Origin: a virus
IMG/VR virus record: IMGVR_UViG_3300046532_000597
Location: 1-25,629 of that record
Length of the DNA stretch: 25,629 nucleotides
Reading direction: 5' to 3' (one strand)
Below are positions 10,995 through 14,714 of the stretch, piece by piece (position 1 is the stretch's first letter; each line of letters begins with the position of its first letter). Below the pieces are notes generated by a model. It made no database searches. It saw nothing but the letters and a program-made list of their open reading frames with translations, and was not told the origin of the DNA. Both the position numbers and the translations under genes were made by a program.

Positions 10995-11330
10995 ATGCCT
11001 AATGTTACAGAAGAAGATATTGAGAAACTCCTTCGGTCTATGTCACCAGAAGACCGCATGGCCTTCGATGCTATGAATAATGAGGGGAGACTACCCGTTA
11101 TAGAACCTATTGGAGAGATCCCGCTTGGGATTCCTGACGGTATGTCACAAGAGGCCGTTGATGCTATGAATTATGAGGGAACACCACCCGTTATGGAACC
11201 TATGCCAGGGATGTCACCACAGGCCGGTGGGCAAATCGGCGCTTCTCCTGAAGTAAGTGGCATTAATGCAGAAGAAGAAAACAAACGCCGCATGATGGAA
11301 CAGCTTTTGCGAAATCAGTATGGTAGGTAA
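10995..11330 (+). CDS. Small acidic hypothetical protein with internal duplication (111 aa)
   Basis: A 111-residue Met/Pro/Glu-rich protein between the two neck proteins. Two copies of a motif, roughly 'DAMNNEG-RLPVIEP' and 'DAMNYEG-TPPVMEP', are each preceded by MS.E, and their DNA is 37/42 identical (11067-11108 and 11160-11201). It begins 'TEEDIEKLLRSMSPEDRMAF' and ends in a charged helix (EEENKRRMMEQLLRNQYGR). The start has AAGGA upstream. No catalytic motif or membrane segment is visible. Its place suggests a minor neck or virion component or a regulator of assembly. I do not recognise the family. Confidence 0.65.
   Translation: MPNVTEEDIEKLLRSMSPEDRMAFDAMNNEGRLPVIEPIGEIPLGIPDGMSQEAVDAMNYEGTPPVMEPMPGMSPQAGGQIGASPEVSGINAEEENKRRMMEQLLRNQYGR
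11067..11201 (+). repeat. Internal 42-base direct repeat in the small acidic gene
   Basis: Positions 11067-11108 and 11160-11201 match at 37 of 42 bases and lie 93 bases apart (31 codons, in frame). They encode the duplicated DAMN-EG-PV-EP motif. The high DNA identity suggests a fairly recent duplication or gene conversion. Confidence 0.8.
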
Positions 11331-11335
11331 CCAAT

Positions 11336-12877
11336 ATGCTCCAACCCCTCCTCGATAATTCCAGAAAGTCGAAGGTCTCGCAGAGTGCCAGTATCCCTGC
11401 GCCTGTGCGGGGGTGGAACGCCCGCGACTCTCTTGCGAATATGCCGGAGGACTTTGCGGTTGAGTTGGAGAATATATTCCCCAACCTGACAAGCTGCGAT
11501 CTGAGGTCTGGCTTTGCGTCTCACTCAACCGGCAACGGCTCTGGGGCTGTCGAGACTTTGGTGGAGTATGCGGGGCCGTCAACACGCAAGCTAATCTCTG
11601 CGGCTGGCTCTGTAATCTATGATTCATCCGCTGCCGGTGGCTCAACGTCCATTGCCACAGGCAAAGCGAATGCCAGATGGCAAACAACGATGTTCGGCAC
11701 ATCCGGCGGGAATTTCCTGTTTATGGTCAATGGCGAAGATGCTCCGATCTATTACAATGGCAGCGCCTTCGTAACGCCCACGTTGAGCGGCGTGACGGCT
11801 ACAGATATTGTAAATGTGGCAGCGCACCAGAGGCGGCTGTTCTTCGTGTTTAACGATAGCCTGGTATTTGGTTATCTTCCGGTAGTCTCTGTTGCCGGTA
11901 CTGTTGCCACATTTGACATCGGCGGTTTATGCAAAAAGGGCGGCTACCTCCAAGCTATAGGATCGTGGACGCGAGATGGCGGTGCTGGCCCAGACGATCT
12001 TTTCGTGGCTATCACAAGCGAAGGCGAGTGCATTATATATTCCGGCAATGACCCATCCAGCGCAGATGCTTGGAGTCTTGCCGGTGTTTTCAATATCGGA
12101 AAGCCGATAGGCCGAAGGTGTCTTGAGAAATCAGGTTCCGATCTGACCGTTATCACTCAAGATGGCGCTATTTCTTTGTCTGCATTTTTGCCTATTGATC
12201 AGGTCGCGGCTTCCGGTCAAGCCATCTCAACCAATATCCAGAATGAGTTCCTTGCATCAACAAGGGCTTATTCCACTATATTCGGGTGGCAGTCCATTCT
12301 CTACCCGCAGGGATCATACTCATTATTCAACATCCCGTTATCTTCTACGGAATCTGTCCAATACGTTGTGAATAGCCAGACTGGCGCATGGTGTAAATTC
12401 ACCGGGCAGAACGCCGCTTGCTGGTCTTTATACAACGGTGATCTATATTTCGGCGCTCAAGACGGTGGTGTAATATATAAGGCAGATACAGGTACTAGCG
12501 ACAATGCGGCTGATATAGATTGGAAGATCAGGCCATCCTTTAGTTATTACGGGTCTAGGGGAAACAAAAAGATTTTCTCCTTATGCAGACCACATTTCAT
12601 ATCATCCGGGGTTCCATCGTTTGCTATTGATCTGAACCTAGATTTCTCAGATATCAACCCGACAAACATCCCGACCCCATCAGAGACAGCTTCTGCATTG
12701 TGGGATGTCTCAAAATGGGATGAATCCTACTGGGCGGAAGAAGTGACTTCTGCGGCTTGGACAACTGTTTTCGGTATGGGAGAGTGCGCGTCTCCAACAA
12801 TCCGGGGGGGTACAAAAACCGTCAGTATATCTTTCACTGCCTACGACATGATCTGGCAGCAAGGTGGGGCCTTGTAA
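11336..12877 (+). CDS. Neck/DNA-stabilisation protein, P22 gp10-like propeller
   Basis: A 513-residue beta-rich protein. It opens with 'APVRGWNARDSLANMPEDFA' and then 'AVELENIFPNLTSCDLRSGF', the characteristic entry to the gp10-like family that closes the neck after packaging. Repeating strand blades follow (LVEYAGPSTRKLISAAGSVI, 'FLFMVNGEDAPIYYNGSAF', RRLFFVFNDSLVFGYLPV, 'YLQAIGSWTRDGGAGPDD', 'IYSGNDPSSADAWSLAGVF', 'WCKFTGQNAACWSLYNGDLY'), consistent with a beta-propeller. It comes after the gp4-like gene as in P22. The start is preceded by GGTAGGTAA. The stop overlaps the next start as TAATG, so the two are probably translationally coupled. Confidence 0.85.
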   Translation: MLQPLLDNSRKSKVSQSASIPAPVRGWNARDSLANMPEDFAVELENIFPNLTSCDLRSGFASHSTGNGSGAVETLVEYAGPSTRKLISAAGSVIYDSSAAGGSTSIATGKANARWQTTMFGTSGGNFLFMVNGEDAPIYYNGSAFVTPTLSGVTATDIVNVAAHQRRLFFVFNDSLVFGYLPVVSVAGTVATFDIGGLCKKGGYLQAIGSWTRDGGAGPDDLFVAITSEGECIIYSGNDPSSADAWSLAGVFNIGKPIGRRCLEKSGSDLTVITQDGAISLSAFLPIDQVAASGQAISTNIQNEFLASTRAYSTIFGWQSILYPQGSYSLFNIPLSSTESVQYVVNSQTGAWCKFTGQNAACWSLYNGDLYFGAQDGGVIYKADTGTSDNAADIDWKIRPSFSYYGSRGNKKIFSLCRPHFISSGVPSFAIDLNLDFSDINPTNIPTPSETASALWDVSKWDESYWAEEVTSAAWTTVFGMGECASPTIRGGTKTVSISFTAYDMIWQQGGAL

Positions 12878-14292
12878 TGGCTGATCTATTCGGTAGCCCA
12901 GAATGGCAGAAATTAGCCGATGATAACCCCAAAGAATATTATGAAAACACCCCCTTCATGCGTTCCTTATGGGAGGGGCGCTTGCCTACATGGTTGGGGC
13001 AAGCATATGAACAGGATATTAGCCCAGCTATAGAGGCGGCTCCTTCCCCGACAACAATGAAGGGGGCTTTAACTTACGGAAAAGGTGCGTACAACCTCGC
13101 TAAAGGCTTGGTCACAGGTGCTGTTGATACAATTGATAGCGCCCAGAAAGACCCTTATGATCTGAAAAAAGTGCTTGACCTTTCATTAATGGTCACTGGT
13201 GGCGGCGGTCTGTTAGGGCGTGTGCCAGCGGGGTCTGGAAAAGTGCTTGGGGCAAACGTCTACCAAGGTGGGCCGCACAAGTATGGGCCGGAGGGTGCTG
13301 CGAAGTCGCTGGATCACATGGGCAAGGGAGAGGGCGCACAGGCTTACGGCTGGGGCCGGTATGATGCTGGTGCGGAGGGTGTGGCCAAGGAATACCAAGT
13401 TAAAGTTCCGTTTCAAGATATAAAAAGGTCATTCCTAAAGGAATTGCCGGATGACGCAGAGATTGAGGAGGTTATGTCTCTTCTGGGTAAAAAGCACTTT
13501 TCCGAAAGTCAAGAACGTGTTATCCGCGCGTTACATGACGACGATTGGCTGGGATTTGACTCACCGGCAGCGGCGATTTCCGCCGTATATTCAAAAAACA
13601 TTGACAACTGGGACCCGTCTGACGTTTTGCGGCGTGCTGTTAATGACGCTGGCTACCTCTACAAGCACGACCTCCCCGACGAAGACATAGCGCGGTATAT
13701 GGACTGGGATAAGCCGCTGAGCCAGCAGCCGGAGAGTGTGCGGGCGGCTTTGGCTAAAATAGTGCCAGATCATAAAGTTAAGAATGTTGGCGGCGTTCAA
13801 ATGTTGGAAGTAGATGGGAAATGGACAACGCTCGACCTCCGCGACAGCATCCCGGTGGGGACTGTGCCAGATAATGTTACGGGCGGTGAGATTTATCAAT
13901 ACATCCAAAATGTAGCTAGACGTAACGCTAGGGATGCGAATGATATTCCGTCTACAACTACACAAGGTTCTCAACAAGCAGCCTCCGAAGCCCTAGGCCG
14001 CGCAGGCATCCCCGGCCTGAAATACTATGACCAGATGAGTCGGCAGGCTGCTACCGGGCGCGGTTTGCACATAACACCGCCAAGCGATACAGTCAGCGGA
14101 AAATGGATGGTTAAGGGCAATGACCCCAATTCCAAAGGGATGCACTTTGACACCGAAGAAGCGGCGAAGGCAGCACTTAAAGAACAATTGGCGGCTCAAA
14201 CCCGCAACTACGTCACATGGGATCAGGACGTTCTCGACCGCATGAAACTGCTGGAGCGGAACGGGGAATCCATGATTGACGCATTACGATGA
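12877..14292 (+). CDS. Virion-associated protein with ADP-ribosyltransferase-like polyvalent domain
   Basis: A 471-residue protein whose start overlaps the previous stop (TAATG). Residues 1-125 are a probable virion part with a glycine-rich hydrophobic patch (TGGGGLLG, 107-114). Residues about 128-400 resemble the ADP-ribosyltransferase-like domain of phage polyvalent proteins: VYQGGPHKYG (128-137), GEGAQAYGWGRYDAG (151-165), YLYKHDLPDEDIARYMDWDK (260-279) and PLSQQPESVRAAL. The region AASEALGRAGIPGLKYYD (368-385) follows, and the domain closes with RNYVTWDQDVL (443-453). A short domain (about 405-440) appears inserted before that last strand. Relatives usually have YHG or YRG at the first motif, so the Q here may affect activity. 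The neighbours suggest it is packaged and ejected. Family recognition is fair; activity is unproven. Confidence 0.7.
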   Translation: MADLFGSPEWQKLADDNPKEYYENTPFMRSLWEGRLPTWLGQAYEQDISPAIEAAPSPTTMKGALTYGKGAYNLAKGLVTGAVDTIDSAQKDPYDLKKVLDLSLMVTGGGGLLGRVPAGSGKVLGANVYQGGPHKYGPEGAAKSLDHMGKGEGAQAYGWGRYDAGAEGVAKEYQVKVPFQDIKRSFLKELPDDAEIEEVMSLLGKKHFSESQERVIRALHDDDWLGFDSPAAAISAVYSKNIDNWDPSDVLRRAVNDAGYLYKHDLPDEDIARYMDWDKPLSQQPESVRAALAKIVPDHKVKNVGGVQMLEVDGKWTTLDLRDSIPVGTVPDNVTGGEIYQYIQNVARRNARDANDIPSTTTQGSQQAASEALGRAGIPGLKYYDQMSRQAATGRGLHITPPSDTVSGKWMVKGNDPNSKGMHFDTEEAAKAALKEQLAAQTRNYVTWDQDVLDRMKLLERNGESMIDALR

Positions 14293-14714
14293 CGGAACTG
14301 GTCTTTGGCCGTGATGATGAGTTAGCTACCTGGGCAGAAGCACATTACCCAGATTGTGCGCCACTTTCTAGGCCATTGACGGCCATCGGCGTGGCATCAT
14401 ATAGCGGAGATATCATGGGGGTTGCTATTTACCACAATTACCGTCAAAATGACATCGAAATTACTTTCATAACCGCGACCCCTCGTTGGGCCACGCCGGG
14501 CAATATACGGGCTTTATTGCATTACCCGTTTATTCAACTAGGCGTCAAGCGGATGACAGCAATCACGAAAAAATCAAATAAGAAAGCCCGGTCTTTTATG
14601 ACTGGGCTTGGTTTTATCTTGGAGGGTGTGCATCCCTACGCAGCGCGTGACTGCACAGCAGCTTGCACCTATGGCTTATATGCCAAGAATGCGGAGAAAT
14701 GGACAAATGGGTAA
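14289..14714 (+). CDS. GNAT-like acetyltransferase-fold protein
   Basis: A 141-residue protein with an ATGA overlap with the upstream stop. The middle shows the GNAT strand-turn-helix: IEITFITATPRWATPGNIRA (residues 56-75), then VKRMTAITKKSNKKARSFMT (86-105) and LGFILEGVHPYAARD, the usual 'N..A..F...LGF..EG' C-terminal half. The acetyl-CoA loop is not the classic Q/RxxGxG, as is common in phage members of this group. GNAT-fold proteins occur among internal virion genes of podoviruses, and T7 gp13 relatives are often annotated this way. The role may be structural or enzymatic, with the substrate unknown. The stop overlaps the next start by 8 bases. Confidence 0.75.
   Translation: MTELVFGRDDELATWAEAHYPDCAPLSRPLTAIGVASYSGDIMGVAIYHNYRQNDIEITFITATPRWATPGNIRALLHYPFIQLGVKRMTAITKKSNKKARSFMTGLGFILEGVHPYAARDCTAACTYGLYAKNAEKWTNG

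What the first reader, a model, noticed from the sequence alone, without database searches (positions are those of the whole stretch)
12877..14292. Candidate virion-delivered ADP-ribosyltransferase-like protein
The protein joins a virion-type N-terminus to sequence resembling the ADP-ribosyltransferase domain of phage polyvalent proteins, and its gene sits between neck and ejection genes. T4 Alt is a known example of an ADP-ribosyltransferase injected with phage DNA. Here a similar role would be carried by a podovirus-type ejection set. The first motif is YQGGPH rather than the YHG/YRG form I associate with relatives, so activity is uncertain. A small extra domain seems inserted near residues 405-440.
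Basis: partly seen in the sequence, partly recalled or inferred. Interest (0 to 1): 0.6.

Follow-up and report, generated by a model that had tools for sequence, protein, structure and literature searches.

The report
Phage ADP-ribosyltransferase-like protein with swappable inserts
A gene among the virion-building genes of an uncultured phage encodes an ADP-ribosyltransferase-like protein, probably injected into the host, whose fixed enzyme frame carries small domains in its surface loops that related phages swap wholesale, much as antibodies keep a frame and change their loops.

Summary
ORF 12877-14292 (471 aa) lies among P22-type head/tail genes and encodes a divergent ADP-ribosyltransferase (ART) domain. 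The window protein itself hits no ART model. Its family does: 47 of 73 relatives match Pfam ART-PolyVal, profile-profile probability is 98%, and a relative's model best matches solved ART-superfamily structures, though none below E 0.001. The first motif is Q-for-H, as in 11 of 156 cores, recurring in separate lineages and under purifying selection. The position of the PARP catalytic Glu is Asn throughout. Activity is therefore unproven.

The more notable result: the 'small extra domain' is one of three exchangeable inserts. Close relatives keep four framework blocks (about 83-95% DNA identity) while the segments between show no similarity. One helical cassette occurs at loop 1 here, at loop 2 in other phages (up to 60% identity), and outside ARTs altogether. 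Two phages carry ART paralogues with matching frames and different inserts. The N-terminal module also precedes other effector-like domains. I read it as a modular virion effector whose inserts probably set the target. Virion presence, activity and target are inferred. New variant of a known kind.

The parts
12877..13248 (+). N-terminal module, residues 1-124: helical with a long hydrophobic helix 58-91. Weak match to a module shared by many solo ART proteins and by non-ART proteins; proposed virion-packaging/delivery part
   Evidence: AF2 helices, pLDDT about 55; shared N-term HMM hits the window at E 2.4e-4 and about 30 other ORFs
13258..13278 (+). ART motif I, VYQGGPH (Q130 in place of His), strand 1
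   Evidence: H in 145, Q in 11 of 156 cores
13321..13395 (+). ART motif II, GKGEGAQAYGWGRYDAG...Y (Y162, Y173 invariant), strand 2 and following helix
   Evidence: profile-profile match to canonical ART-PolyVal, prob 98.1, E 9e-14
13368..13653 (+). Site 1 insert = helical cassette A (DIKRSFLKELPDDAE..DDWLGFDSPAAAISA), core residues 178-257
   Evidence: no DNA similarity to L003 between blocks 13247-13367 and 13654-13749; same cassette at site 2 elsewhere; pLDDT 90-97, all helical
13654..13749 (+). Framework block 2, YLYKHDLPDEDIARYMDWDKPLSQQPESVR (strands 3-4)
   Evidence: 90% DNA identity to L003; conserved across the family
13750..13972 (+). Site 3 variable segment with a small beta module (residues 301-318) and helices
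   Evidence: no DNA match to L001 or L003; secondary structure
13973..14044 (+). Framework block 3, AASEALGRAGIPGLKYYDQMSR (D385, R389 invariant)
   Evidence: 94% DNA identity to L003
14045..14198 (+). Site 2 insert = cassette B (SGKWMVKGNDPNSKGMHFDTEEAAKAAL), beta-beta-beta-alpha; a 7-residue linker in most relatives.
   Evidence: weak DUF2188 match, E 0.051
14199..14289 (+). Framework block 4: motif III TRN(444)YVTWD(449), strands 5-6, C-terminus; Asn where PARP-type enzymes have the catalytic Glu
   Evidence: PARP table in PMC7955679
11336..12877 (+). Upstream neighbour: tubular tail B-like (neck/tail) gene
   Evidence: 30% to phiGT1 tubular tail B; phrog_5107
14289..14714 (+). Downstream neighbour: GNAT-like, IVPA/P22 gp14-type gene
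   Evidence: Pfam Acetyltransf_3 E 5e-4, phrog_4470, phiGT1 gp16 note

Best explanation
The gene encodes a late, probably virion-packaged effector. A short N-terminal module carries it into the particle and then the host. An ART-superfamily domain then binds NAD and probably modifies a host or defence macromolecule early in infection. The domain is a conserved frame with exchangeable cassettes in its loops: site 2 directly precedes motif III, the place of the substrate-recognition (acceptor/ARTT) loop in other ARTs; site 1 follows the helix after strand 2. Recombination within the short framework blocks, perhaps helped by duplicate copies in some phages, swaps the cassettes and so probably re-targets the enzyme. 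Shown: ART kinship of the family, insert positions, cassette exchange, reuse of one cassette at different sites, swap of the whole ART for another domain, purifying selection. Inferred: packaging, injection, catalysis (uncertain here because motif I is Q and motif III Asn), target, and that the inserts set specificity.
For: ART kinship: 47/73 relatives hit PF18760, 26 DUF3990; profile-profile 98%; the minimal relative's model (pLDDT 86.7) best matches MbcT, RES toxins and exotoxin-type ARTs in the PDB and ART-PolyVal proteins in BFVD at E about 1e-18; one polyvalent protein (L065) carries a full canonical PF18760 domain plus an ART of this family. Exchange: framework blocks of high DNA identity interrupted by unrelated segments in window/L001/L003, L021/L022/L024, L010/L012, L033/L038; 52 of 64 pairs with 75-90% framework identity have site-1 inserts without detectable similarity. 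Cassette A at both sites, 60% identity, E 6e-35, and in about 8 non-ART proteins. Two ART genes on one contig with shared frames and different inserts, in two phages. N-terminal module before an unrelated domain: 94% DNA identity over 2,236 bp ending at motif I (L255/L024), and before LPD23 in the gene next to an ART gene (L016). Context: in the head/neck/tail block of all podovirus-type relatives mapped, but at at least four different places. Framework dN/dS about 0.15 in the Q clade. Published inference that phage ARTs near virion genes are packaged (PMC5512222, PMC9503650).
Against: No direct evidence of virion presence or activity. P0001 itself has no ART hit in Pfam, and its full-length model has no PDB match. 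Best PDB E-value for the relative is 0.02, not significant alone. His of motif I is Gln, and the PARP Glu position is Asn in every core examined. The inserts could not be placed relative to the NAD pocket in 3D (no coordinates at hand), so the specificity role is by analogy only.
Confidence: 0.5

Rival explanations
1. The window protein is a pseudoenzyme: an ART frame that no longer catalyses but still binds NAD, ADP-ribose or a protein, and mainly displays the cassettes as binding modules (decoy or inhibitor).
For: Q for H in motif I and Asn at the PARP Glu position. Replacing the catalytic His strongly reduces activity in other H-Y-E ARTs, as cited in PMC7955679.
Against: Y162, Y173, D385, R389 and N444 are kept in the Q clade and dN/dS is about 0.15. 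Glu at motif III is not universal even in canonical ART-PolyVal (16 of 58). The table in PMC7955679 lists a Q-Y-T member among mono-ARTs.
Confidence: 0.25
2. The domain degrades NAD (glycohydrolase or phosphorylase like RES-domain toxins) rather than modifying a macromolecule, acting on host metabolism or NAD-based defence.
For: The top PDB fold matches of the minimal relative are MbcT and the RES toxin of P. putida.
Against: Those matches are not significant alone, the sequence motifs are ART-PolyVal/PARP-like, and a pure NADase would not need exchangeable loops.
Confidence: 0.12
3. It is not injected: a moron expressed late, or from the prophage, that acts inside the producing cell, for example on assembly or on superinfecting phages; proximity to structural genes only reflects co-transcription.
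For: Its place within the structural block varies, and relatives lie in bacterial contigs, probably prophages.
Against: The gene stays inside the virion gene block although its place changes, and close homologous domains lie in giant polyvalent proteins thought to be packaged.
Confidence: 0.25

Closest known systems
ART-PolyVal (Pfam PF18760), ART domain of phage/plasmid polyvalent proteins (Iyer et al. 2017, PMC5512222)
   Same: Motif I-II block is homologous (98% HHalign); relatives match the Pfam model; same phage late-gene setting; same polyvalent proteins carry both
   Different: Q in motif I, Asn at the PARP Glu position, extra GEGAQAYG and GIPGIKYLDxxSR motifs, and three exchangeable inserts; solo protein, not polyvalent, in the window
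Sulfitobacter phage phiGT1 gp5 (QLB38217.1)
   Same: Solo ART of this family in a P22-type podovirus structural module (30% identity)
   Different: Has His in motif I, no long site 2 insert, and sits between portal and scaffold genes; annotated hypothetical
T4 Alt
   Same: Proposed logic: an ART packaged in the virion and injected
   Different: R-S-E clade, no sequence similarity found, proven activity
RES-domain toxins (MbcT, P. putida RES)
   Same: Nearest solved folds of the minimal family core (prob 0.8-0.93)
   Different: NAD-degrading chromosomal toxin-antitoxin enzymes; no sequence similarity found
Polymorphic toxin systems / tail-fibre C-terminal exchange
   Same: Conserved delivery N-terminus with exchangeable C-terminal effector
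   Different: Here exchange also happens inside the enzymatic domain, at fixed loop positions

Membership tests
ART superfamily, H-Y-[EDQ] clade | ART fold | tested here: met
   Family level: Foldseek list headed by ART-superfamily structures, BFVD ART-PolyVal E about 1e-18. The window protein's own full-length model found nothing
ART superfamily, H-Y-[EDQ] clade | His in motif I | tested here: not met
   Gln130 in the window; His in 145/156 family cores
ART superfamily, H-Y-[EDQ] clade | Tyr in motif II | tested here: met
   Y162 invariant in 73 sequences
ART superfamily, H-Y-[EDQ] clade | acidic/Gln residue in strand 5 | tested here: inconclusive
   PARP Glu position is Asn444. D449, at the end of the strand, is Asp in 97/156 cores; D385 is invariant. 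Which one is the published strand-5 Asp could not be fixed
ART-PolyVal (PF18760) | Pfam gathering score 31.2 bits | tested here: not met
   No hit for P0001; phiGT1 gp5 30.0 bits; 47/73 relatives hit at E<=0.1, N-terminal part of the model where positions were shown
Polyvalent protein | several unrelated effector domains in one polypeptide | tested here: not met
   Window protein is N-terminal module plus ART; relatives L009, L023, L065 meet it
T4 Alt-type virion ART | R-S-E active site | tested here: not met
   Motifs are Q-Y-N/D
T4 Alt-type virion ART | present in virion and injected | not testable with these tools
   Needs proteomics; phiGT1 MS exists in Table S3 of PMC10386132 but supplements were not readable here

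The most novel reading that the evidence does not exclude
Phages maintain an open-ended system for re-targeting an injected NAD-dependent enzyme: a constant ART frame with fixed loop slots filled by interchangeable mini-domains, swapped by recombination between duplicate or related genes, with the whole enzyme also replaceable behind one delivery module.
Probability: 0.35. Interest if true: 0.85.

Novelty: new variant of a known kind. Interest (0 to 1): 0.6.

Why it matters
ARTs in phage polyvalent proteins have been predicted effectors without known targets since 2017. A natural series of proteins with the same frame and different loop cassettes offers a direct way to find targets: compare what near-identical frames with different inserts bind or modify. 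If cassette equals target, it is a new way for phages to diversify injected effectors, and the cassettes themselves are a catalogue of small binding domains.

Tried and rejected
Direct Pfam, PHROGs, NCBIfam and PDB sequence searches of P0001: nothing useful. Full-length Foldseek of the P0001 model: noise, probably because inserts and the N-terminus dominate; repeated on a minimal relative. Hypothesis that inserts are just fast-evolving loops: rejected by cassette reuse at other sites and sharp DNA block ends. Inteins or introns: considered and rejected (inserts of 40-100 aa, in frame, no splice motifs apparent by eye; not searched). One single diverged site-1 domain: iterated HMM clustering gave several small families, not one, though common deep ancestry of some cannot be excluded. 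Profile search of the family against PDB sequences: nothing. Search for a wider family of the N-terminal module with one sequence: only 5 loci. Literature search for earlier reports of insert exchange in phage ARTs found none, in open-access papers only.

Full report
What is there. The window is a 25.6-kb fragment of an uncultured virus with a P22/Mx8-type podovirus structural block: terminase, portal, scaffold, major head protein, tail genes, then the gene in question, a GNAT-like gene, an S74-domain gene, two long genes in the ejection-protein position and a tail fibre. The ORF at 12877-14292 encodes 471 aa and abuts both neighbours with overlaps of 1 and 4 bases.

Is it an ART? P0001 alone matches no ART model, but its relatives do. 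phiGT1 gp5, in a cultured Sulfitobacter podovirus, reaches 30.0 bits against PF18760 ART-PolyVal (cut-off 31.2). Of 73 aligned relatives 47 match that model and 26 match DUF3990. A profile of the family against canonical ART-PolyVal domains taken from the same set of loci aligns motifs I and II at 98.1% (E 9e-14), and a second local alignment pairs GIPGIKYLD..SR..GTRNFVVF with GyDGI....VaF.P.QIK. An AlphaFold model of a relative with short inserts (L079; pLDDT 86.7, pTM 0.79) retrieves MbcT, RES toxins and exotoxin-type ARTs as its top PDB hits (best prob 0.93, E 0.02) and viral ART-PolyVal proteins at E about 1e-18. The full-length P0001 model (pLDDT 77.7) retrieved nothing. I take ART kinship as secure for the family and therefore for the window protein by homology.

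Active site. Motif I is Q130 instead of His. In 156 cores His occurs in 145 and Gln in 11; Gln recurs in separate backgrounds (the window clade; the L087/L014 lineage; L064), and one phage carries a Gln and a His copy on the same contig (L168/L169). In the 102 canonical ART-PolyVal domains gathered for comparison, His was found in all 74 with a readable motif I. Y162 and Y173 are invariant. At the PARP Glu position all cores have Asn (N444); the selection pattern accepted N or Y there, and no member was dropped for lacking N. In canonical ART-PolyVal domains that position is Glu in only 16 of 58. Iyer et al. name an Asp in strand 5; D449 (Asp in 97 of 156) or the invariant D385 could be meant, and I could not decide. 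The framework of the Gln clade is under purifying selection (dN 0.08, dS 0.53 for window-L001), so the protein is functional, enzymatically or not.

The main finding: exchangeable inserts. Aligning relatives shows that the ART frame is interrupted at fixed places. Site 1 (P0001 172-257) holds about 55-127 aa in most relatives but is almost empty in MetMV. Site 2 (390-441) is a short linker (typically 7 residues) in most but holds more than 20 and up to 101 aa in about a third. Site 3 (292-365) varies too. At DNA level, L001 and L003 are 95% identical through motif II, then share nothing for about 290 bp, then 88% over 102 bp, nothing, 93% over 180 bp, nothing at site 2 (15 against 186 bp), then 94%; the adjacent tail gene and GNAT gene match continuously. 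The window shows the same block pattern against L003 (84, 90, 94 and 87%). L021, L022 and L024 combine two site 1 inserts and two site 2 states independently. L033 and L038 have 96% identical frames and unrelated site 1 inserts. In 52 of 64 pairs with 75-90% framework identity the site 1 inserts have no detectable similarity. Pairs are not independent, so the figure is descriptive.

Cassettes move. The window's site 1 insert (cassette A, with DDWLGFDYPSQAISAA) occurs at site 2 in MetMV, L043, L083 and L088, with up to 60% identity and E 6e-35 between sites. Among 80 loci found with cassette A alone, most have it at site 1, at least 12 at site 2, and about 8 have it in large non-ART proteins. 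Two further, weaker families also occur at both sites (L003 site 2/L066 site 1 at E 1e-5; L015 site 1/L054 site 2 at E 0.004). Cassette A is over-represented in the later counts because it was searched for. Cassette A is modelled as a confident all-helical domain (pLDDT 90-97) and the site 2 insert, cassette B, as beta-beta-beta-alpha. Contigs G003 and G005 each carry two ART genes, at their two ends, with matching frames and different inserts; such copies could serve as donors.

Delivery module. The N-terminal about 100 residues of solo ART proteins share a weak module. In L255 it is followed by an unrelated domain (ParB-like by eye; no Pfam hit) although the DNA is 94% identical to the ART-encoding L024 for 2,236 bp up to motif I; in L016 the gene after the ART gene has the same N-terminal module followed by LPD23 (78 bits) and an HELQH peptidase-like motif. 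So whole effectors are exchanged behind one N-terminus. The ART gene itself sits at different places of the structural block in related phages: after terminase (L004, L014, L087), after portal (L010), between the tail genes (L012, L046, L047), or before the GNAT gene (window, L001-L003, L013, L015). L087 has an 88% identical head protein but its ART lies elsewhere.

How it probably works. Published surveys argue that ARTs next to virion genes are packaged and injected (PMC5512222, PMC9503650). I adopt that for delivery. Site 2 lies just before motif III, where the acceptor/ARTT loop of other ARTs contacts the substrate (general knowledge of PARPs and ART toxins), so the inserts most likely choose the target. 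This is inference. Catalysis in the window copy is about even odds.

Novelty. ARTs in polyvalent proteins and effector shuffling are known. I found no report of cassette exchange inside the ART domain at fixed loop slots (open-access papers only). Hence a new variant of a known kind.

Noticed in passing
L255:1867-2748: Same upstream DNA and N-terminal module as the ART genes of L024, but the C-terminal part is a different domain (IVDQDNNIIEGAHRLEALRKLG, ParB-like by eye; no Pfam hit).
   Followed up: partly
L131, L136, L141, L144, L146, L147, L148, L162: Cassette A (LPEDA...DDWLGFDYPSQAI) stands in large proteins without an ART around it: an apparently undescribed mobile domain; no Pfam family covers it in the window protein.
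   Followed up: partly
G003 (L168, L169) and G005 (L170, L171): Two ART paralogues at the two ends of one contig, with matching frame DNA and different inserts; assembly probably breaks at the repeat.
   Followed up: partly
window 14289-14714: GNAT-like gene at the IVPA/P22 gp14 position; L004 carries a GNAT-like domain fused to the C-terminus of its ART.
   Followed up: no
L017:3715-5167: ART gene split over two overlapping ORFs, possibly a frameshift or a decayed copy.
   Followed up: no
window 10995-11330: 111-aa gene between the tail genes with two similar NxEGxxPVxEPxxxxP-type stretches; no PHROG hit. The space between the tail genes is about 1 kb in L001 and L002.
   Followed up: no
L065:2721-9503: One 2261-aa protein holds a canonical ART-PolyVal domain and, downstream, an ART of the insert-bearing family.
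   Followed up: yes
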